From Pseudomonas farsensis (lineage in GTDB: Bacteria; Pseudomonadota; Gammaproteobacteria; Pseudomonadales; Pseudomonadaceae), in the NCBI RefSeq assembly GCF_014268805.2, contig NZ_JABWRF020000004.1, forward strand, positions 186,001 to 250,000: DNA of 64,000 bases, read 5' to 3'. Positions 38,496 through 47,769 of this stretch are shown here, in pieces (position 1 is the stretch's first letter; the number at the start of each line of letters is the position of its first letter). The position numbers were made by a program, and so were the translations under genes. The notes beneath the pieces were generated by a model. It searched no databases and had not been told where the DNA came from. It saw nothing but the letters and a program-made list of their open reading frames with translations.

Positions 38496-38564
38496 TCCAC
38501 GCAGTAGATGCACGTCAGGGGCCAGGGAGGACCCGGCAATGGCAGAGAATCGTGTGTGAGCTGG

Positions 38565-40898
38565 ATGCGGGCAGCAACGCATCGAGTATGGCTGGGCCTG
38601 GCAGTGCTGGGGGTGGGCCTTGCGGTGGCCGACGAACTACCGCCACCGCCCGCCGAGAGTTCGGCCATTGCCGATGCCACGCTGTACCTGGACCTACTGG
38701 TGAACCAGGTGGGCAAGGCTGAGCTGGTGCCGGTGCAGCAGCGGGCAGGGCGCTTGTACCTGCCCAGCGAGGTGCTGCGCGAGGCCGGCGTGCGCTTGCC
38801 GGGTGACCCGCAAGGCGAGGTCGCCGTGGAAGACATTCCAGGCCTGCACGCCGACTACGACAGCCAGAACCAGCGCCTGCTGCTGCAGGTGCCACCGTCG
38901 TGGCTGCCGGACCAGCAAATCGGTGACCGCGGCCTGTACCCGGCCAGCGACAACCGCACCAGTTTTGGCGCCTTGTTCAATTACGATGCCTACCTCAACG
39001 ATACCGACGACGGCGGGACCTACCTGGCTGCCTGGAACGAACTGCGTCTGTTCGACACCTGGGGCACGTTTTCCACCACCGGGCAGTGGCGCCAGTCGTT
39101 CAATGGGCCGCACAGCGAGACGCGCCAGGGTTTTCTGCGCTACGACACCACGTTTCGCTACACCGATGAACAGCGCCTGCTCAGCTACGAGTTGGGCGAC
39201 GTGGTGACCGGCGCCTTGCCGTGGACCACCTCGGTGCGTGTGGGGGGCGTGCAATTGTCGCGCGACTTCGGCGCCCGCCCAGACCTGGTCACCTACCCCT
39301 TGCCGGCCTTTGCCGGCGAAGCGGCGGTGCCAACCTCGCTGGATCTGTTCATCAATGGCTACAAAAGCAGTACCACCGAGCTGCAGCCAGGCCCCTACAC
39401 GCTAACCAACGTGCCGTTCATCAATGGCGCGGGTGAGGCCGTGGTCGTCACCACCGACGCCCTGGGCCGGCAGGTCTCAACGACCTTGCCGTTCTACGTC
39501 ACCAGCAGCTTGCTGGCCAAGGGTTTGTCCGACTTCTCGATGGCCGCAGGCAGCCTGCGCCGTGATTACGCCGTGCGCGACTTTGCCTATGGCCCAGGGG
39601 TGGCGACTGCCAGCTTGCGCCATGGCCTGTCGGACTACTTCACTGTCGAAACCCATGCCGAGACGTCCGAGTCGCTGGCGCTCGGCGGCGTGGGTGGCAA
39701 TCTGCGCGTCGGTACCTTTGGCGTGCTCAATGCTGCAGTGGCGCAAAGCCGCTTCGCCGGGGAGAGCGGCCAACAGGTGGCGCTTGGCTACCAGTACAAC
39801 AGCCGGCGCCTTGGCTTCAATTACCAGCGCATCGAGCGCCGTGGCGAATACGCCGATCTGTCGCTGGTCGACAGCCCCTACACGCGCCTGAGCCGGCGCA
39901 GCGAGCAGGCTACCGTGAGCGTGAACCTGGACCGCTACGGCAGCCTGGGTGCGGGCTTCTTCGATATTCGCGCTGGCGACGGCTCGCGCACCCGGTTGCT
40001 GAACCTGAGCTGGAGCAAGCCCCTGTGGGGCAACAGCAGCCTGTACCTGTCGGCCAACCGCGATATCGGCGACAGCCAGTGGGCGGTGCAGGCCCAGGTG
40101 GTGGTGCCGTTCGATCTGCGCGGCACGCTCTCGTTCAGCGCCGAGCGCAGCAAGGACGGCCAGGACCTGCAGCGCGTCAACTACAGCCGCGCGGTGCCGG
40201 TTGGGGGTGGTGTCGGCTACAACCTGGGCTACGCCAGCGGCGGCAGCAGCGGTGCCTATCGTCAGGCCGACCTGACGTGGCGGCTGCAGTCGGTGCAGTT
40301 GCAGGCCGGGCTGTACGGCAGTAGCGAGCAGATGACGCGCTGGGCCGATGTCAGCGGCTCGTTGGTCCTGATGGATGCCGGAGTGTTCGCCGCCAACCGC
40401 ATCGATGATGCCTTTGTGGTAGTCAGCACAGCAGGCTACGCCGATGTGCCGGTGCGCTACGAAAACCAGCTGGTTGGCCGTACCGACCGTAACGGGCACC
40501 TGCTGGTGCCGTACAGCAGCGGCTATTACCGAGGCAAATACGAGATCGACCCCATGGACCTGCCGGCCGATGTGCTGGCGCCGCAGGTTGAGCAGCGCGT
40601 GGCCGTGCGCCGCAACAGCGGTTACCTGCTGGAATTCCCGCTCAAGCGGGTGTTGGCGGCGAGCCTGGTACTGGTGGATGGCAAGCAGCAGGAACTCAAG
40701 CTGGGCAGCCGGGTGCTGCATCAGGAGAGTGGCAGCGAGGCGGTGGTGGGCTGGGACGGGCTGGTGTATCTGGAAAACCTGGCGCCAGACAACCATCTGC
40801 GGGTGGACAAGGCGGACGGTGGGCAGTGCACGGTGGCCTTCAGGTTGCCTGAAGGGCAGGGCCCGATCCCGCTGATCGGCCCGCTGGTGTGCCAGTGA
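38565..40898 (+). CDS. csuD: outer-membrane usher (CsuD/CupE5 type)
   Basis: About 777 residues from ATG 38565 (MRAATHRVWLGLAVLGVG, a signal peptide). In-frame starts at 38556 (GTG) and 38508 are possible. The order is an N-terminal periplasmic domain, a 24-strand beta-barrel with a middle plug, and a C-terminal domain ending in a cysteine (PLVCQ). Typical usher segments include FINGYKSSTTELQPGPYTLT and GADQ-like strands. It assembles and exports the pilus. The best ribosome-binding site (AGGGAGG at 38524) points to an out-of-frame ATG at 38539 that encodes only six codons. The stop overlaps the next start (TGATG). Confidence 0.9.
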   Translation: MRAATHRVWLGLAVLGVGLAVADELPPPPAESSAIADATLYLDLLVNQVGKAELVPVQQRAGRLYLPSEVLREAGVRLPGDPQGEVAVEDIPGLHADYDSQNQRLLLQVPPSWLPDQQIGDRGLYPASDNRTSFGALFNYDAYLNDTDDGGTYLAAWNELRLFDTWGTFSTTGQWRQSFNGPHSETRQGFLRYDTTFRYTDEQRLLSYELGDVVTGALPWTTSVRVGGVQLSRDFGARPDLVTYPLPAFAGEAAVPTSLDLFINGYKSSTTELQPGPYTLTNVPFINGAGEAVVVTTDALGRQVSTTLPFYVTSSLLAKGLSDFSMAAGSLRRDYAVRDFAYGPGVATASLRHGLSDYFTVETHAETSESLALGGVGGNLRVGTFGVLNAAVAQSRFAGESGQQVALGYQYNSRRLGFNYQRIERRGEYADLSLVDSPYTRLSRRSEQATVSVNLDRYGSLGAGFFDIRAGDGSRTRLLNLSWSKPLWGNSSLYLSANRDIGDSQWAVQAQVVVPFDLRGTLSFSAERSKDGQDLQRVNYSRAVPVGGGVGYNLGYASGGSSGAYRQADLTWRLQSVQLQAGLYGSSEQMTRWADVSGSLVLMDAGVFAANRIDDAFVVVSTAGYADVPVRYENQLVGRTDRNGHLLVPYSSGYYRGKYEIDPMDLPADVLAPQVEQRVAVRRNSGYLLEFPLKRVLAASLVLVDGKQQELKLGSRVLHQESGSEAVVGWDGLVYLENLAPDNHLRVDKADGGQCTVAFRLPEGQGPIPLIGPLVCQ

Positions 40899-41860
40899 TG
40901 CGGCGCCTCGGGCTGGCCTTGCTGGCAGTGCTGTTGCCGGCGCCCGCGTGGGCCGCGTGCTCTGTGGTCAGCACCGCTGCGGCGGGGTTCGGCACCGTCA
41001 ACTCAACCTTGGTGCGCACCACTGTGCAGAGCGCCTCAACCCCCAACGCCGGGCTGCGCTGCACCGGTTCGCTGCTGTCGCTGCTGGTCAGTACCGACCA
41101 CATCTACGTCACCATCACCTCCACCAGCAGCGGGCTGGTGGCGCCGACGGGGGATGTCATCCCTTATACGATCTATGCCGACAGTGCGGCCAGCTACGCC
41201 ATCACCCGCGGCACGCAGTTTGATCTGGCCCGCAATGGCGTGGCCGATGCGCTGGGTTTGCTCAGCGGCAACACGCCCAAGACCGCACCGTTGTATCTGA
41301 AGACGGTTATCGGCGCCAATGTCGCGGCGGGGGTTTATACCGAGACGCTGAACGTGGCTTGGGCGTGGAATTATTGCTCTGGCATTGGCCTTGGCAACGT
41401 TTGCCTTGGGCGGGATGTCGGGTCTGGCAACCAGACCGTCAGTGTCAGCCTGACCGTGAGTAACGACTGCCAGATCACCACCCCGAACATCAGCTTTGGC
41501 AGTGCGCCGGTGGTGGCCGGGTTCACTACGGTGAACCAGAGCTTGAGCCTGTCGTGCACCAAGGGCAGTGCCTACACCGTAGGCCTGAACGATGGGCAGA
41601 ACGCTTTGGGTGGGCGGCGGCGGATGAAATCCGCCGCTGGCAATTACCTGGCCTACGACATTTTCAAGAGCGGCGGCACTACGCGCTGGGGCTCGGTTTC
41701 GGCGGCCCGGCGTGCAAGCAGCGATGCCGATGTAAACCCTGGCAACGGTAGTGGCATCGGTGCGCAGGTGTTCAATTACAACGCCCGAATTTACACCGAC
41801 CAGCCCACTCCGCCGGCTGGCAGCTACCTCGACAATGTAGTGCTGGATGTGACGTTTTAA
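40898..41860 (+). CDS. csuE: two-domain SCPU tip adhesin (CsuE/CupE6 type)
   Basis: 320 residues. Signal peptide MRRLGLALLAVLLPAPAWAA. Two SCPU domains in tandem: the first (from ACSVVSTAAAGFGTVN) and the second (from VSNDCQITTPNISFGSAP, ending YLDNVVLDVTF). The doubled length and last position in the operon are the marks of the pilus tip subunit, which binds surfaces through hydrophobic loops in CsuE. Start overlaps the usher stop by one base. Confidence 0.9.
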   Translation: MRRLGLALLAVLLPAPAWAACSVVSTAAAGFGTVNSTLVRTTVQSASTPNAGLRCTGSLLSLLVSTDHIYVTITSTSSGLVAPTGDVIPYTIYADSAASYAITRGTQFDLARNGVADALGLLSGNTPKTAPLYLKTVIGANVAAGVYTETLNVAWAWNYCSGIGLGNVCLGRDVGSGNQTVSVSLTVSNDCQITTPNISFGSAPVVAGFTTVNQSLSLSCTKGSAYTVGLNDGQNALGGRRRMKSAAGNYLAYDIFKSGGTTRWGSVSAARRASSDADVNPGNGSGIGAQVFNYNARIYTDQPTPPAGSYLDNVVLDVTF

Positions 41861-41947: not shown

Positions 41948-42064
41948 TGTAGGAGCGGCCTTGTGTCGCGAAAGGGTCGCAAAGCGGCCCAGGCGATATC
42001 AAGTTGAAGCACAGATTTTGGGGGCGCTTCGCACCCCTTTCGCGACACAAGGCCGCTCCTACAG
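41948..42064. repeat. REP pair after the pilus operon
   Basis: Facing TGTAGGAGCGGCCTTGTGTC heads with CGCGAAAGGG extensions on both sides. Just upstream, 41870-41930 carries a separate element (GGGAGATTCTATGGTTT) shared with the gap at 15.5 kb. Confidence 0.88.
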
Positions 42065-42130
42065 AAACCGCGTCCAGGCGCGGTATTGATGCCAGGCGAG
42101 GGCCAGGCCAGCCTGTAGAACAAGTGGCTG

Positions 42131-43279
42131 CTAGCGCAGGTCGTCGACCATCTTGAGCAGCGTTTCAAGCACCGCCCCGGCCAGCGCCTTCGCGCGTGCG
42201 CCCGACCACTGTGCTACCGGCTCCGGCGCATCGTCATGGTCCTTGAACGGCATTTCCAGCGTCAGCGACAGGCAATCATAGGCCTGGCCCACGGCATTGC
42301 AGGCAAGGGTCATGTTGGCCTGGCCGGGCGCGTCGCGGGTGTAGCCGTGGGTGGTCTGGAAATCTGCGGTCAAGCTGCTCAACGTAGTGCGGAACTGCTC
42401 TTCCAACCTGGCGATACGCGGGGTATAGCCAGGGTTGCCTTCGCAGGCCGCGGTGAATACATGGGGTATTTCTTCATCGCCATGGGCATCGACAAAGGCG
42501 TCCACACCGTACAAGTTCATCTGGCTTTGGGCGAAGAACACCTCGGGGCTTTGCTCAAGGCTGGCGTTCTGCCAGGCGCGATTGAGGTCCTGGCCCTTGA
42601 AGTTGGTGCGCAGGTGGCCGAGGAACGCGCCGTCGGGGTTCATGTTGGGAATCAGGTAGAGGTCGGCCTTGGCCAGCAGTTGCGCAATGGCCGGGTCGTT
42701 GGCCTGCAAACGGTCGATAACCCCTTCGATGAACCATTCGGCCATATGTTCGCCGGGGTGCTGCTGGGCGATGATCCACAGCTTGCGCTTGCCGGCACCG
42801 CCATCGCCTGCCCGCAGCAGCGGGATGTCCCGGCCTTGCACGCTGCGGCCGTTGGCTAGCACTTCGACGCCGGGGATTTGCCGGGCGCGTTCGATCAACT
42901 GGTTGTGGCGTGCGCGGGAGTAAGGCTCGAAATAGGCGAACCAGATAGTGTCGTGTTCGGCCTCGACTTCGAAGCTGAGCGCCTTGCCGTCGTACTGGCT
43001 GGGCACACGAAACCAGGTTTTCTGGTCGTAGGAGGCCGCCGCGTTGTAACCCGTCCAGGCGTTTTTGTACGAGGAGGCATGGGCGTTGTCGAGGCTGAAG
43101 CGATGCGTTTGCCCCACGATCAGGCCGCTGACCTTGAAGTGGAACCACTGGAAATGGCCGCTGTGGGTGTCCGGGCGGATATGCAGGTGCACCTGGGCGG
43201 GGTTGCTGGCATCTACCACATGGATATTGCCGGCATCGAACTCACAGTCGATGTGCAGTGGGGACAGCGTCACGGTCAT
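42131..43279 (-). CDS. M14-family zinc carboxypeptidase (AGBL/CCP-like)
   Basis: 382 residues from ATG 43279 (AGGAG 8 nt ahead). An N-terminal beta-domain of about 120 residues precedes the peptidase domain. Zinc ligands: HPGEHMAEW (HxxE) and the later His in VDAHGDEE; substrate Arg/Asn region LRTNFKGQDLNRAW; catalytic Glu in LTLEMPFKDHDD. The N-domain plus motifs match cytosolic carboxypeptidases that remove C-terminal residues such as glutamate from proteins. The bacterial substrate is unknown. No signal peptide. Confidence 0.88.
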   Translation of the reverse strand: MTVTLSPLHIDCEFDAGNIHVVDASNPAQVHLHIRPDTHSGHFQWFHFKVSGLIVGQTHRFSLDNAHASSYKNAWTGYNAAASYDQKTWFRVPSQYDGKALSFEVEAEHDTIWFAYFEPYSRARHNQLIERARQIPGVEVLANGRSVQGRDIPLLRAGDGGAGKRKLWIIAQQHPGEHMAEWFIEGVIDRLQANDPAIAQLLAKADLYLIPNMNPDGAFLGHLRTNFKGQDLNRAWQNASLEQSPEVFFAQSQMNLYGVDAFVDAHGDEEIPHVFTAACEGNPGYTPRIARLEEQFRTTLSSLTADFQTTHGYTRDAPGQANMTLACNAVGQAYDCLSLTLEMPFKDHDDAPEPVAQWSGARAKALAGAVLETLLKMVDDLR

Positions 43280-43435
43280 TGCCAGGCTCCTGTCTTGGCG
43301 TTGTTGTGCGGTTACTCTACACCGCAACGCTGGCGACAGGGCGCGTGAAATTTCCTTCAAATAAGTCGGACTGTTCTGTGAGCTGACCAGCTTCTAACCG
43401 TGGCGTATTGGCTCAAGGGCAGGCAGGCGTTTTGG

Positions 43436-43948
43436 TCAGGCCCACAAACCCAGTGCTGCCAAGGCCGCTAGCCCTAGCGCAATGGTCACCGAGCAGCCGC
43501 CCAGCGACAGTGCCGCCCGGCCCTGGCGATACCAGCCATCCTGCCCGAGCAGCCGGGCCGGTGCCTGCAGGCTGCGCCAGCGCAGTTCGGTCTGGTGGAA
43601 GGCGTGCAGATGCTCGGGGGCTGCATCCAGCCAGCGGCGAAAATCGATACGTTCGCTGGCCGTCACTTCCGGGCTTTGCAGGCGCACGTACCATTGGATC
43701 GCCACACTGGCCAACGCGTCGCCCGGCTCGCGGGTGGTCTGCAGGGCCTGGTTCAGATGGCGCTCGATGGCCAGCAACGGCAAGCCCAGGCGCGCGGCAA
43801 TCTCGGCGAAGGGCAATTGGTCGAGACGGTTGAGCAGAAAGACTTGCTGCACCCGCCGCGGCAGGCGCTTGAGTGCATGTAGCAGGGAGTCGGCAGGCTG
43901 GTCGGCGGTGCGCGGGTGTTGCTGTAGAGGCAACAGCAGACGGCTCAT
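43436..43948 (-). CDS. sigma region-4 / FecR N-domain chimera with C-terminal TM helix
   Basis: 170 residues, with a strong AAGGAG site. Residues about 20-75 (LLHALKRLPRRVQQVFLLNR ... EIAARLGLPLLAIERHL) match region 4 of FecI-type ECF sigma factors. Residues about 80-130 (IQWYVRLQSPEVTASERIDF ... WLDAAPEHLHAFHQTELRWR) match DUF4880, the cytoplasmic N-domain of FecR-type anti-sigma regulators. The last 20 residues are a hydrophobic helix. Sigma region 2 and the periplasmic FecR domain are both absent, and I see no remnants of them on either side. A Fur box lies 71 bp upstream, and PrrF is encoded just beyond. Function unknown; iron-regulated and membrane-tethered by inference. Confidence 0.75.
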   Translation of the reverse strand: MSRLLLPLQQHPRTADQPADSLLHALKRLPRRVQQVFLLNRLDQLPFAEIAARLGLPLLAIERHLNQALQTTREPGDALASVAIQWYVRLQSPEVTASERIDFRRWLDAAPEHLHAFHQTELRWRSLQAPARLLGQDGWYRQGRAALSLGGCSVTIALGLAALAALGLWA

Positions 43949-44018
43949 GGACAGCTCCTTGCTCAGGGAATGGAGGGAGGGGCGCGTCTTCCGTGACGCC
44001 GAACCAGCTTAATCGCAA

Positions 44019-44033
44019 TGAGATTGATTCTCA
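44019..44033. promoter_or_regulatory. Fur box ahead of the sigma4-FecR chimera
   Basis: TGAGATTGATTCTCA fits the 7-1-7 Fur pattern TGATAATnATTATCA at 11 of 14 positions by my alignment. It lies 71 bp before the start at 43948, where a promoter would be. Confidence 0.65.
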
Positions 44034-44130
44034 AGTGCTGATTCGGCAAAGATTTGTAATGAGCGTTCACGCACTGAAACACTTTTGCTATGATCGCCGC
44101 CATTAAACGATCTTCATTAGCCTGAAGAGC

Positions 44131-44160
44131 AAAAAAAATGACCCGGCAAAAAGCCGGGTC
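44131..44160 (-). terminator. PrrF terminator
   Basis: Minus-strand stem GACCCGGC, loop TTTTT, GCCGGGTC, then TTTTTTTT; perfect 8-bp stem plus flanking A-T pairs. Confidence 0.93.
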
Positions 44161-44248
44161 AAAAACCGTGATTAGCCTGATGAGGAGATAATCTGAGAGT
44201 CCGACCTGAGGACTTGCAGGTTATCCAGCGGGTCTCGCGACCAGCTGA
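44131..44248 (-). ncRNA. prrF: PrrF-type iron-responsive small RNA
   Basis: About 118 nt on the minus strand. The 5' hairpin reads CAGCTGGTCGCGAGACC, the single-stranded core contains CTCAGATTATCTCCTCATCA then GGCTAATCACGG, and the 3' end is a terminator GACCCGGC/GCCGGGTC followed by eight Ts. This layout and sequence match PrrF RNAs of Pseudomonas, Fur-repressed RNAs that, with Hfq, silence iron-rich proteins (SodB, aconitases, succinate dehydrogenase). A near-perfect Fur box overlaps the promoter. The 5' end is placed within a few bases from homology. P. putida-group strains usually have two unlinked copies; only one is in this window. Confidence 0.92.
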
Positions 44249-44254
44249 GTGCAA

Positions 44255-44269
44255 TAATAATCGTTATCA
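44255..44269. promoter_or_regulatory. Fur box of prrF
   Basis: TAATAATCGTTATCA fits the 7-1-7 Fur pattern at 12 of 14 positions. It lies directly upstream of the PrrF 5' end and overlaps its -10 region, as expected for iron-dependent repression. From 44270 to 44388 nothing further is recognised, apart from a TACCG..CGGTA hairpin at about 44290-44306. Confidence 0.85.
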
Positions 44270-44388
44270 TTTGCCAGTCAAATGATTTTTACCGTACTCG
44301 GTAAAAAAAACGTACCGACGCACGCCTCATCCCTGCCAGCGGGGGATAGCACCAGCCCTGGGCATCACGTCCTGCTTCCTTCCTGCAT

Positions 44389-44697
44389 TCAATCCTGTTC
44401 CATGGCGTGGCGCTGCTCCAGCAGAGCGCGGGCCATGTTGGTCATGTGCATCAACGCAAAAACCACCTCACGCGTCGTGCCCTGCTGATGGGCTGCGGTT
44501 TCCTGCGCGGTGGCCGCAGCGCAGCGCAGCAGCTCCAGGGCATGTTCCATGGCCTGCTCGCGGCTCACCCCGTCACGCAAGGTCCACAGCGAACGCTCAA
44601 GGTCGGGTGTGGCGGTGGGCGGGTTGAGGTAGTAGTCGAGGGCTCGGCGGGCGGCCTCGCTGTCGAGTTCTGTATCCGTTTTTTTCGGGCTGTTCAT
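44389..44697 (-). CDS. DUF6124 family protein
   Basis: 102 residues from MNSPKKTDTELD; an upstream in-frame start would extend it by seven residues. A helical, soluble protein with SEAARRALDYYLNPP, a conserved start of this small Pseudomonas-specific family (DUF6124, formerly DUF3077). Function unknown. Members are numerous in each genome. It diverges from the S24-type regulator gene, sharing a short promoter region. Confidence 0.78.
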   Translation of the reverse strand: MNSPKKTDTELDSEAARRALDYYLNPPTATPDLERSLWTLRDGVSREQAMEHALELLRCAAATAQETAAHQQGTTREVVFALMHMTNMARALLEQRHAMEQD

Positions 44698-44752
44698 CCT
44701 GATTACCTGAGAGTCCAAGCGGGAAAGGGTGTTCGGCGAGTTTAATACCTTG

Positions 44753-44780
44753 AGTATTTTTAGTAGATTACTGAAATACT
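44753..44780. promoter_or_regulatory. nested dyad ahead of the S24-like regulator, probable operator
   Basis: AGTATTT (44753-44759) and AAATACT (44774-44780) are perfect inverted arms. Inside them AGTA/TACT (44762-44772) shares practically the same centre. It sits in the AT-rich 88-bp gap between two divergent genes, where an autoregulatory repressor would bind. Confidence 0.6.
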
Positions 44781-44785
44781 ACTTT

Positions 44786-45493
44786 ATGTGTATTGAGCGT
44801 GAGGTGGCAGCCCGTATTGTGCCTGCGATGAATATGGACAAATGGATCGCACTCATCCGAGACCGGATCGAGGAGCTGGATATCTCCCAGGAGCAGCTAG
44901 CCGAACGCGTTGGGGTTTCCCAGGGCAGCATTGGCCATTGGCTGCGTAAGCGCCGGCAACCGCGGGTCGAATCGATGAACCGGGTGTTCGTCGAATTGGG
45001 CATGCCGCATTACCAGGTCTGCATGCAGTTGCGTGTGCAGGGCCAGGTGGGCGAGGAGCGCGCCCGGTACGTGGTGGACGAAGACGAAAGCGTCGATGAT
45101 GCCCAGGCTCAATACTTTGTGTGCTTCCGCTACCCGCTGCGCCAGTGGGTGGCGTTGGGCGAGCCTGAGGCAGAGGCACAGGTGTTCGAGCAGACGGACT
45201 ATCTGGCCCAGGGCAAGGCGTTCTGGTTGACGGTGGAGAACGACAGCATGAACGCCGCCCACGGCACCAGCGTGCCCCAGGGGGTGCGCATTCTGGTCGA
45301 CGACGGCCTGCCTGCCGAGCCTGGCAAGTTGGTGATTGCCCGGTTGCCTGGCAAGAGTGCGATCTTCAGGCAGCTGGTCGAGGAGGGTGGGCAGCGTTAT
45401 CTGAAGGCACTAAACACAAGCTACCCGACGTTGTTGTGCGAGGACGGGTGCGAATTTCTTGGGGTGGTGGTGCGGATGCAGGGGGCTTTGTAG
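44786..45493 (+). CDS. HTH regulator with S24 (LexA/CI-like) domain, probably not self-cleaving
   Basis: 235 residues if started at MCIEREV (44786); ATGs at 44828 (MNMDKW) and 44834 are equally plausible, and none has a clear ribosome-binding site. The N-terminal XRE helix-turn-helix is DISQEQLAERVGVSQGSIGHWL. The C-terminal half has the S24 fold, with the serine motif ENDSMNA. The lysine normally found in the t-vKrl segment is arginine here (SAIFRQL), and no Ala-Gly cleavage site is seen before the serine. It therefore resembles phage-type repressors that lost autoproteolysis. Neighbouring genes are not phage genes. Confidence 0.82.
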   Translation: MCIEREVAARIVPAMNMDKWIALIRDRIEELDISQEQLAERVGVSQGSIGHWLRKRRQPRVESMNRVFVELGMPHYQVCMQLRVQGQVGEERARYVVDEDESVDDAQAQYFVCFRYPLRQWVALGEPEAEAQVFEQTDYLAQGKAFWLTVENDSMNAAHGTSVPQGVRILVDDGLPAEPGKLVIARLPGKSAIFRQLVEEGGQRYLKALNTSYPTLLCEDGCEFLGVVVRMQGAL

Positions 45494-45819
45494 CTGGGGC
45501 TACACCAACCCCTTCTTTCAAGGGGGGCGCGAGAGGGCTGGCAGGTGCTCGCGGGCAGGTTTCCAGCGCCTACAAGATCGAGCGCCGCCCGCGCGGCGCA
45601 TCGCGGGACAAGCCCGCTCGCCACAACTCTCTATCATTTCCCACAGCATTGGGTCCAACCAGCAATGTTGCGGTTGAGCACGGTCTCTGTGGGAGCTGGC
45701 GATAGCCTGCGATGCGCCGCGCGGGCGGCGCTCGATCTTGTAGGCGCTGAAAGGCTTCCGGCAAACACTTGGCAGCCCTGACTCGATCACCTCGATGCCC
45801 CCGCAGGTCGCCTGTCCCC
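45494..45819. repeat. repeat-filled gap between S24 regulator and liuD
   Basis: No gene is seen in these 326 bp. A 41-bp inverted repeat (see 45564-45749) encloses copies of two other repeat families. The flanks carry a CCCCTTCTTTCAAGGGG hairpin near 45510. Confidence 0.75.
45564..45749. repeat. composite repeat island with perfect 41-bp inverted arms
   Basis: The left arm 45564-45604 (begins CAGCGCCTACAAGATCGAGC) and right arm 45709-45749 are perfect reverse complements. The 104-bp interior contains GGGACAAGCCCGCTCGCCAC and GGGAGCTGGCGATAGCC family members. The interior with part of the arms is about 93% identical, in inverse orientation, to 15285-15400. Confidence 0.9.
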
Positions 45820-47769
45820 TCACTCCATCTCCACCAACACCCTCCCTTCGCTCACCATCTCCCCCTCCTGGCAAAACAGCCCCTTGACCGTGCCATCCTC
45901 AACCGCGCGGATGCTGTGCTCCATCTTCATCGCCTCCAGCACCACCAGCGTCGCGCCTGCGGCAACCACCTGGCCAGGCTCCACCAGCACCCTGACGATG
46001 CTGCCATTCATCGGCGCTGCCAGCCCGCCATGGTGCCCCGGGCCCGCTTCAGCAGCGGCTATCGGGTCATGCTGGCGCAGCGTATGCAGCTCGCCCTGCC
46101 ACTGCAGATACAGCACATCATCACGACGCACCGCCAGGTAGCGCCGGCGCAGGCCGTCGTGGTCGTGGCACAACTGCTCCCCGGCCAATTGCCAGGCGCT
46201 CGGTGCGTTACCTTCAACGGCAACCGCCTGGGCCTGCCCGTCGCTGTGCAGATACACGCTGCTGCGCGCAGGCAAACCCAGGCGCAGGCCATTGCGGGTG
46301 GCCCAAGGCGAGGCCGGGTCATCCTCGCGTTGCAGGGCCGGAGTGCTTTGCAACCAGGCCTGTGCGGCAGCCTCCCAGAACAACGCTGGCAGCGGCTCTG
46401 GGGCCGGTAGCAGCACCTGTTGATGACGTGGAATGAAGCCTGTGTCCAGTTCTGCCGCCGCAAAGCCTGGGTGGGCGAGAATGCGGCGCAGGAAGGCGAT
46501 GTTGGTTTTCACCCCGCCGATAGCAAACTCGTCGAGCATTGCCAGCAGGCGCAGGCGCGCCTGTTCACGGTCCACGCCCCAAGCGATCAGCTTGCCCAGC
46601 ATGGGGTCGTAGAACGGCGAGACTTCATCGCCCTCACTGACCCCGCTGTCCACACGGCGCCCGGCGCCGGGCGCCGATTCACGGTACAACGCAAGGGTGC
46701 CGGTGGCCGGCAGAAAGTCGTTGGCCGGGTCTTCGGCGTACAGTCGCACCTCGATGGCATGGCCATTGAGCGGCACCTGCTCCTGGGTGATCGGCAGCGG
46801 CTCGCCGCAGGCCACGCGGATCTGCCAGGCAACCAGATCCAGGCCGGTAATCGCCTCGGTGACCGGGTGCTCCACCTGCAGCCGCGTGTTCATCTCCATG
46901 AAGAAGAACTCGCCACGGGCATCGAGCAGAAATTCCACCGTGCCAGCCCCGACATAGCCGATGGCCTGGGCGGCGCGCACTGCCGCCTCACCCATGGCCT
47001 TGCGCAGCCCAGGCGCAAGGCCTGGCGCGGGGGCTTCCTCGACCACCTTTTGGTGGCGGCGCTGGATCGAGCAGTCGCGCTCGTTCAAATAAATGCAATT
47101 ACCGTGCTGGTCGGCGAATACCTGAATCTCCACGTGCCGGGGCTTGAGCACGTATTTTTCCACCAGCATGTGCGCATCGCCGAACGAGGCCTGGGCTTCG
47201 CGCTGTGCCGAAGCCAGGGCATCGGCCAGTTGGCTGGGCTCATCAACCACTTTCATGCCCTTGCCGCCGCCACCGGCGCTGGCCTTGAGCAGCACCGGGT
47301 AGCCAATGCTTGCGGCCGCCTCGCGGAAGGTGTCCAGGTCCTGTGCCTGGCCATGGTAGCCGGGCACCAGCGGTACGCCAGCGGCCTGCATCAGCGTCTT
47401 GGCCGCCGACTTGCTGCCCATGGCATCGATGGCGCTGGCGGGTGGGCCGAGGAACATCAACCCGGCCGCTTCAATGGCGCGGGCAAAGGCGGCATTTTCC
47501 GACAGGAAACCATAGCCTGGGTGGATCGCCTGGGCGCCGCTGGCTTTGGCGGCCGCGAGGATCTTGTCGATCACCAGGTAGCTCTCGGCGGCTTTGCTGC
47601 CGCCCAGGTCGACGCGGATATCGGCTTCGCGGCTGTGCCGCGCGTCGCGGTCGATGGCGCTGTGGACGGCAACGGTGGTCAGGCCCATGGCCTTGGCGGT
47701 GCGCATCACCCTGCAGGCGATCTCGCCACGGTTGGCCACCAGCAGGGTAGTGAGGGTTGCGCGGCTCAT
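45820..47769 (-). CDS. liuD: methylcrotonyl-CoA carboxylase biotin subunit LiuD
   Basis: 649 residues. Biotin carboxylase domain first (AKGVPLV-type lid, KASAGGGGKGMKVV ATP loop, MNTRLQVEHPVTEAITG), then a linker domain and the biotin carrier with LEAMKMEHSIRA about 35 residues from the end. It carboxylates 3-methylcrotonyl-CoA in leucine degradation together with LiuB. The assignment among biotin carboxylases rests on the neighbours. Its start overlaps the liuC stop by 4 bp. Last gene of the operon. Confidence 0.94.
   Translation of the reverse strand: MSRATLTTLLVANRGEIACRVMRTAKAMGLTTVAVHSAIDRDARHSREADIRVDLGGSKAAESYLVIDKILAAAKASGAQAIHPGYGFLSENAAFARAIEAAGLMFLGPPASAIDAMGSKSAAKTLMQAAGVPLVPGYHGQAQDLDTFREAAASIGYPVLLKASAGGGGKGMKVVDEPSQLADALASAQREAQASFGDAHMLVEKYVLKPRHVEIQVFADQHGNCIYLNERDCSIQRRHQKVVEEAPAPGLAPGLRKAMGEAAVRAAQAIGYVGAGTVEFLLDARGEFFFMEMNTRLQVEHPVTEAITGLDLVAWQIRVACGEPLPITQEQVPLNGHAIEVRLYAEDPANDFLPATGTLALYRESAPGAGRRVDSGVSEGDEVSPFYDPMLGKLIAWGVDREQARLRLLAMLDEFAIGGVKTNIAFLRRILAHPGFAAAELDTGFIPRHQQVLLPAPEPLPALFWEAAAQAWLQSTPALQREDDPASPWATRNGLRLGLPARSSVYLHSDGQAQAVAVEGNAPSAWQLAGEQLCHDHDGLRRRYLAVRRDDVLYLQWQGELHTLRQHDPIAAAEAGPGHHGGLAAPMNGSIVRVLVEPGQVVAAGATLVVLEAMKMEHSIRAVEDGTVKGLFCQEGEMVSEGRVLVEME

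What the first reader, a model, noticed from the sequence alone, without database searches (positions are those of the whole stretch)
43436..43948. Chimera of sigma-factor region 4, FecR N-domain and a TM helix, under a Fur box
Seen: residues about 20-75 look like FecI-type region 4, about 80-130 like the FecR cytoplasmic DUF4880 domain, and the C-terminus is one hydrophobic helix. Sigma region 2 and the FecR periplasmic domain are absent, and no remnants flank the gene. Known: FecI and FecR are normally separate proteins, and FecR residues near its N-terminus bind region 4. Inference: a membrane-anchored protein that could titrate anti-sigma factors or core polymerase, or hold a self-complexed region 4, acting as an iron-controlled modulator of other ECF systems. 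The Fur box, ribosome-binding site and intact frame argue against a simple pseudogene.
Basis: partly seen in the sequence, partly recalled or inferred. Interest (0 to 1): 0.68.

Follow-up and report, generated by a model that had tools for sequence, protein, structure and literature searches.

The report
Reduced sigma/anti-sigma fusion beside PrrF
In many Pseudomonas species a small membrane protein, made of one piece of a sigma factor joined to the piece of the regulator that normally grips it, sits under an iron-control site next to the iron-saving small RNA PrrF; it is a real, conserved gene whose task is still unknown.

Summary
The 170-aa protein passes Pfam cut-offs for Sigma70_r4_2 (21-70) and DUF4880 (83-121) and ends in one C-terminal membrane helix. 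It is no decayed remnant: 105 of 396 genomes of the genus carry the fusion, under purifying selection.

(1) It lies directly downstream of the sRNA gene prrF (Rfam, 160 bits); 146 of 148 held fusion loci keep this, while 18 of 20 sampled prrF loci without it go straight on to the M14 carboxypeptidase. (2) Its nearest relatives are FecI-FecR pairs with a TonB receptor; in three genomes the same two pieces are separate overlapping genes. (3) Conservation is inverted. Among the three parts compared, two true FecI/FecR families keep the promoter-recognition helix best and DUF4880 worst; the fusion does the reverse.

Best reading: an iron-controlled, sensor-less membrane module working by protein contact through DUF4880, not by promoter reading. 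The partner is unknown and titration is untested. A new variant of the sigma/anti-sigma hybrid kind (IutY).

The parts
43436..43948 (-). sigma4-DUF4880-TM fusion gene, 170 aa plus stop
   Evidence: orthologues
43733..43888 (-). sigma region 4 half (residues 21-72)
   Evidence: Pfam Sigma70_r4_2 E 2e-12; four helices, block pLDDT 91-98
43571..43702 (-). DUF4880 half (residues 83-126), the FecR cytoplasmic domain
   Evidence: Pfam E 4e-14; PupR 5cos_A Z 6.3, rmsd 1.9 over 56 residues
43442..43519 (-). C-terminal membrane helix (residues 144-169), almost nothing beyond it
43955..43960 (-). ribosome-binding site AAGGAG, kept in most P. putida-group loci listed
44019..44033 (-). Fur box TGAGAATCAATCTCA, about 85 nt before the ATG
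44132..44281 (-). PrrF sRNA gene (RF00444), same strand, directly upstream; its own terminator at 44139-44161
   Evidence: 160.5 bits, E 7.9e-30; terminator
42131..43279 (-). M14 carboxypeptidase gene directly downstream on the same strand; possibly the same operon
   Evidence: Pfam M14_N and M14; same strand within 400 nt in 108 of 148 loci, no same-strand match in the DNA held for 31 (many loci have only 1.5 kb flanks)

Best explanation
The gene encodes a stripped-down cell-surface-signalling regulator. The sigma2 domain and the periplasmic sensor are gone; what remains is sigma4, the DUF4880 domain of the kind that binds sigma4, and a C-terminal membrane anchor. Shown: the domains, their conservation, the adjacency to prrF, the Fur box as a sequence, and the conservation pattern. 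Inferred: when iron is short, Fur lets go and the protein accumulates on the cytoplasmic face of the inner membrane; sigma4 and DUF4880 sit against each other in one chain; DUF4880 is the working surface, and the tethered sigma4 acts as a lid or pseudo-partner, not as a promoter reader. Most likely mechanism (inference): partner exchange at the membrane with FecI-type sigma factors, or the polymerase carrying them, which sets a ceiling or buffer on iron-starvation ECF activity. It has no sensor, so its only visible input is iron through Fur.
For: Conservation inversion. In 7 genomes holding both genes, a true FecI keeps its recognition helix at 97% and helices 1-2 at 84% (21 pairs), and its FecR DUF4880 at 61% (15 of 21 pairs usable); in the fusion these are 52%, 69% and 75%. 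A second FecI/FecR family (9 loci) gives 82%, 64% and 55%; 76 non-redundant fusions give 46%, 65% and 72%. Pooled dN/dS: DUF4880 0.16, sigma4 0.30, recognition helix 0.36. W19 and W39 of FecR, hit by induction-negative mutations (PMC9249621, section 12 read), fit W86 and W106 here by spacing, invariant in 78 of 78 (the matching is mine; the third such residue, W50, falls on F117, also invariant). AlphaFold2 pTM 0.72 with about 125 of 170 residues well ordered suggests the two domains are placed together (inference, no inter-domain error was shown). Fur box. Split pairs with the same two pieces.
Against: No binding or expression data for this gene beyond one table row for a probable orthologue. 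FecR-FecI binding is specific: E. coli FecR1-85 does not bind the P. aeruginosa FecI equivalent PA2468 (PMC9249621, section 12), so a generic buffer of many FecIs is doubtful. The nearest full FecI/FecR is missing where the fusion is present, so no obvious cognate partner exists. FecR N-termini can inhibit or activate depending on the system (same section), so even the sign of the effect is open. The inversion rests on two control families, only one of them in matched genomes, and extra constraint on DUF4880 could mean an entirely different partner.
Confidence: 0.4

Rival explanations
1. Sigma4 decoy: the tethered sigma4 imitates FecI and occupies FecR-type anti-sigma factors, freeing their sigma factors, by mimicry as in PhyR-NepR (recalled).
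For: Helices 1-2 of sigma4 are kept (69%; dN/dS 0.22); 4 of 44 relatives also match the Pfam PhyR_sigma-like model; sigma4 is the FecR-binding part (PMC9249621, section 12).
Against: A free decoy would not need its own DUF4880 beside it, and DUF4880 is the best-kept of the parts compared. FecR-FecI specificity is high in the one case tested (PMC9249621).
Confidence: 0.18
2. Pro-sigma helper: DUF4880 stimulates one FecI-type sigma factor at the membrane, as FecR1-59 does for FecI.
For: N-terminal FecR, FoxR and FiuR fragments activate their sigma factors (PMC9249621, section 12); DUF4880 is under the strongest constraint.
Against: It stays fused to its own sigma4 and to the membrane, with almost no residues beyond the helix for processing. 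IutY variants with periplasmic residues depend on RseP (PMC5411451, abstract).
Confidence: 0.12
3. Membrane-bound DNA-binding regulator, for example of prrF or of its own operon.
For: An HTH fold is present, and membrane-anchored HTH regulators exist (recalled).
Against: The recognition helix is the least conserved of the three parts compared (46-52%), whereas two true FecI families keep it at 82-97%.
Confidence: 0.08
4. Degenerate remnant of a FecI/FecR pair with no function.
For: It clearly lacks sigma2 and the sensor, and it is absent from one clade of 18 sampled loci. In the more distant fusion group (190 pairs) the linker (dN/dS 0.94) and the membrane helix (0.60) are weakly constrained.
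Against: dN/dS 0.16-0.51 in every part over all pairs, and 0.18 for DUF4880 in the distant group too; start, RBS and Fur box kept; 105 of 396 genomes.
Confidence: 0.04

Closest known systems
IutY of P. putida (full sigma/anti-sigma hybrid, aerobactin; ECF243)
   Same: Sigma-factor and FecR-type parts in one polypeptide with one membrane helix; iron-related (PMC5411451 abstract and section 12; PMC9249621 passages).
   Different: IutY has sigma2 and a periplasmic FecR-like domain and answers the receptor IutA. Here both are absent, no receptor was found in window 42000-46000, and a DUF4880 domain is present.
FecI-FecR pairs of L153, L154, L156, L173-L175, with a TonB receptor
   Same: Closest relatives of both halves: profile E 1.6e-24 to 1.4e-27, against at best 8e-18 (sigma4) and 1e-7 (DUF4880) for the genome's other pairs.
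   Different: Full length, separate genes; receptor with STN domain confirmed by Pfam in L153 and L173; no prrF in the DNA held of L153, L156, L173 and L174.
PupR/FecR cytoplasmic domain (PDB 5cam, 5cos)
   Same: Fold of residues 76-131: Z 6.2-6.3, rmsd 1.7-1.9 over 55-56 residues; phmmer E 1.7e-4.
   Different: In PupR it is the N-terminus of a sensor-bearing anti-sigma factor, not a C-terminal partner of sigma4.
PhyR sigma-factor mimicry
   Same: A sigma-like domain kept for protein binding rather than promoter reading would work the same way (inference).
   Different: PhyR carries a receiver domain (recalled). Only 4 of 44 relatives match the Pfam model, and no mimicry was tested.

Membership tests
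ECF sigma factor (FecI group) | region 2 and region 4 both present | tested here: not met
   Only region 4 listed up to E 1; no sigma2 remnant in window 42000-46000
ECF sigma factor (FecI group) | conserved -35 recognition helix | tested here: not met
   52% against 97% in a matched true FecI; 46% against 82% in a second, unmatched family
FecR-type anti-sigma factor | DUF4880 cytoplasmic domain | tested here: met
   PF16220 52.6 bits, cut-off 25
FecR-type anti-sigma factor | periplasmic FecR domain (PF04773) | tested here: not met
   not listed up to E 1; present in the full relative L153
IutY-type sigma/anti-sigma hybrid | sigma and anti-sigma parts in one chain with a membrane helix | tested here: met
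IutY-type sigma/anti-sigma hybrid | complete sigma factor and periplasmic sensor | tested here: not met
IutY-type sigma/anti-sigma hybrid | release by Prc and RseP | not testable with these tools
   needs western blots in protease mutants
PhyR-like sigma mimic | sigma-like domain binds an anti-sigma factor | not testable with these tools
   4 of 44 relatives match PF22233
Fur-regulated gene | Fur box in the promoter | tested here: met
   13 of 14 positions, 1 of 300 shuffles; the box is a sequence match only
Fur-regulated gene | Fur binds and represses | not testable with these tools
   needs ChIP or iron-limited RNA-seq

The most novel reading that the evidence does not exclude
A cell-surface-signalling regulator has been reduced, perhaps more than once, to the bare sigma4-DUF4880 contact on the membrane, then placed under Fur beside prrF, where DUF4880 has taken a new target. 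That would make it an iron-stress regulator without sensor, receptor or promoter reading, working beside the PrrF RNA.
Probability: 0.35. Interest if true: 0.78.

Novelty: new variant of a known kind. Interest (0 to 1): 0.62.

Why it matters
Whether a FecR N-terminus inhibits or activates its sigma factor differs between systems (PMC9249621, section 12). Here that contact has been kept alone, without sensor, sigma2 or receptor, in 105 of 396 genomes searched, so it can be studied in isolation. Its place beside prrF and under a Fur box ties it to the core iron response of the genus. If it buffers ECF sigma factors, a layer is missing from present iron-regulation models of Pseudomonas.

Tried and rejected
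PA2384 as the same protein: recalled as a lead; passages in three papers describe it as a predicted DNA-binding or Fur-like protein, with P. putida orthologue PP_2900 in one of them. Rejected.

Decayed remnant: rejected by distribution, selection, empty-site comparison and lack of remnants.

Independent origin of the split pairs: the tree joins split L155 with full L156 (97/85); L155 shares a flanking gene with L153, L154 and L156, and no receptor match was found in L155. But holding all reduced forms together is not rejected (p-AU 0.205), nor is fusions plus L155 (0.396). So repeated reduction is favoured, not shown. For that tree I left out 9 of 44 fusion rows, and the paralogues were only 7 of the genome's 14 other DUF4880 loci (those in which both halves passed the threshold) plus one from another genome (L178).

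A leader hairpin seen by eye after the Fur box failed a pattern count (1 of 143 fusion loci, 5 of 20 others). Dropped.

My M14 query was in the wrong frame (the tree was useless); one search repeats it in the right frame and is the one used. The S24 and DUF3077 matches and the domain-profile search do not depend on it.

Direction of the single change (loss or gain of the fusion): the M14 tree needs one change (100/98); only midpoint rooting makes it a loss. It used 35 hand-picked fusion loci (33 with M14) and 18 of the 20 others.

Foldseek reached no E <= 0.001; Z values stay under 8, so the folds rest mainly on Pfam. PADLOC: nothing. PHROGs: only a sigma-factor family at E 2e-4.

Literature: searches for DUF4880 with Pseudomonas, prrF with FecR (31), prrF1/prrF2 with synteny (32), PP_4070/PP_4069 (33), prrF with downstream-gene terms (66), Fur-regulon terms (74) and FecI/FecR fusion terms (91); of these I saw the listings, plus passages of PMC2803797, PMC8085936, PMC8999054, PMC2613906 and PMC3377617. 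No description of this fusion appeared in what I saw. The library lacks most subscription journals.

Full report
What is there. The ORF at 43436-43948 (minus) encodes 170 residues. Pfam finds Sigma70_r4_2 at 21-70 and DUF4880 at 83-121, both well above the curated cut-offs, and lists neither sigma region 2 nor the FecR domain up to E 1. AlphaFold2 on 47 sequences gives mean pLDDT 85 and pTM 0.72, with four helices for sigma4, four for DUF4880 and a terminal helix at 144-169. Residues 76-131 match the PupR cytoplasmic domain (5cos_A, Z 6.3, rmsd 1.9 over 56), and residues 12-77 match E. coli sigmaE (1or7_A, Z 6.9, rmsd 2.2 over 66). These Z values alone would be weak; with Pfam they agree.

Distribution. 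A protein search matched 110 of 398 genomes of the genus at E <= 1e-15. A profile search matched 109 of 396 at E <= 1e-22; 4 of these (G013, G054, G166, G290) are not fusions, leaving 105. Three of the 105 rows (G066, G334, G335) count one TGA inside the matched range; in the two that were fetched (L166, L144) the reading frame runs 177 residues, so there the stop lies at the end. The first look scores only some candidates per genome, so these counts are lower bounds. Outside the genus one genome, G518, has a fusion at 69% identity. Named examples include P. putida, P. monteilii, P. mosselii, P. entomophila, P. fulva and P. capeferrum. All 44 scanned relatives hold both domains.

Neighbourhood. 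Rfam places PrrF (RF00444, 160.5 bits) at 44132-44281, minus strand, ending about 180 nt before the fusion's ATG. In 146 of 148 fused loci held, the PrrF core lies 228-380 nt upstream on the same strand; the two misses are a contig end (L111) and L133, whose genome keeps a prrF 31 kb away on the same contig. The 148 are not independent: several genomes occur twice, and at 88% identity 78 remain. Of 20 PrrF loci picked by hand from the rows as lying away from a fusion, 18 show S24 repressor, DUF3077, prrF and then M14, with the M14 start 306-352 nt after the PrrF core, against 796-1029 nt in the 30 fusion loci where both were located; neither domain profile matched anything in the 20 loci. The other two are L191 (from the L133 genome) and L196. 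TTGAGAATC of the Fur box is still there in 16 of the 20, and in 114 of 143 fusion loci. The M14 tree separates 33 fusion loci from 18 empty ones by a single change (100/98).

Origin. The best full-length relatives are FecI and FecR pairs (L153, L154, L156, L173-L175); in L153 and L173 a TonB receptor with STN domain follows. In L155, L176 and L177 the same reduced pieces are two genes, with GTGA (L155) or ATGA (L176, L177) overlaps between them (Pfam on L155 and L176); none of the three has prrF in the DNA held. In L155 a stretch like the first 14 residues of the full FecI sits just ahead of sigma4, as an internal loss of sigma2 would leave, but that match is not significant by itself (E 2.4). 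The fusions form one clade (94/80). Repeated reduction is favoured by the tree and by the shared flank of L155, but it is not shown, since the tests did not reject one clade.

Selection. Pooled over 6960 pairs, which are not independent and partly near saturation, dN/dS is 0.16 for DUF4880, 0.30 for sigma4 (0.22 helices 1-2, 0.36 recognition helix), 0.29 for the membrane helix and 0.51 for the first 20 residues. In the more distant group alone (190 pairs) the figures are DUF4880 0.18, helices 1-2 0.29, recognition helix 0.50, membrane helix 0.60 and linker 0.94. Against true FecI/FecR pairs the pattern is inverted. This is the most telling result: of the parts compared, the one that reads promoters is free to vary, and the one that grips sigma factors is held tighter than in the two ordinary FecR families. 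Only one of the two control families was compared in the same genomes.

Regulation. The Fur box stands at 44019-44033 and is kept at 12-13 of 14 positions in 131 of 148 loci; 7 loci score 10 or less, so it is not universal. In KT2440, PP_4070, probably the orthologue, falls together with a FecR gene, exbB, exbD and tonB on overexpression of another chromosomal sRNA region (6 genes down in all; PMC7324555, section 22 part 1 read). That fits iron control but does not prove it. PP_4070 is called hypothetical there and in the CbrB binding table of PMC6296734 (passage read).

Mechanism and literature. The FecR N-terminus binds sigma4 of FecI; residues 9-59 activate FecI; the FpvR N-terminus inhibits FpvI and PvdS; in FpvI the structures needed to bind the anti-sigma factor are those needed to bind the promoter (PMC9249621, sections 12 and 13 read). 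A chain that carries both partners and a C-terminal anchor would, if they dock, be closed to DNA. I therefore commit to partner exchange at the membrane at 0.4, with a decoy, a helper and a DNA regulator as rivals.

Verdict. It is a conserved new variant of the sigma/anti-sigma hybrid kind, with its function open.

Noticed in passing
window 44112-44127 (-): CTTCAGGCTAATGAAG, a small perfect hairpin just after the prrF terminator, repeats the PrrF-core 9-mer CAGGCTAAT. It is identical in 142 of 143 fusion loci and in 18 of 20 other prrF loci. Purpose unknown.
   Followed up: partly
window 44066-44094 (+): Promoter-like TTCACG-17-TATGAT with TG before the -10, pointing into prrF from behind. A matching -10 pattern is present in 123 of 143 fusion loci and 14 of 20 others. 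It could start an antisense or sponge RNA against PrrF.
   Followed up: partly
window 42131-43279 (-): M14 carboxypeptidase (Pepdidase_M14_N plus Peptidase_M14) follows the fusion, or in its absence prrF directly, behind the same Fur-box-like element, so it may be iron-controlled too.
   Followed up: partly
window 44389-45493: DUF3077/DUF6124 gene and a divergent S24/HTH repressor gene flank prrF; 19 of 20 sampled prrF loci matched each of the two.
   Followed up: partly
window 38508-41860 (+): Outer-membrane usher followed by a spore-coat-U domain protein.
   Followed up: no
   Followed up: no
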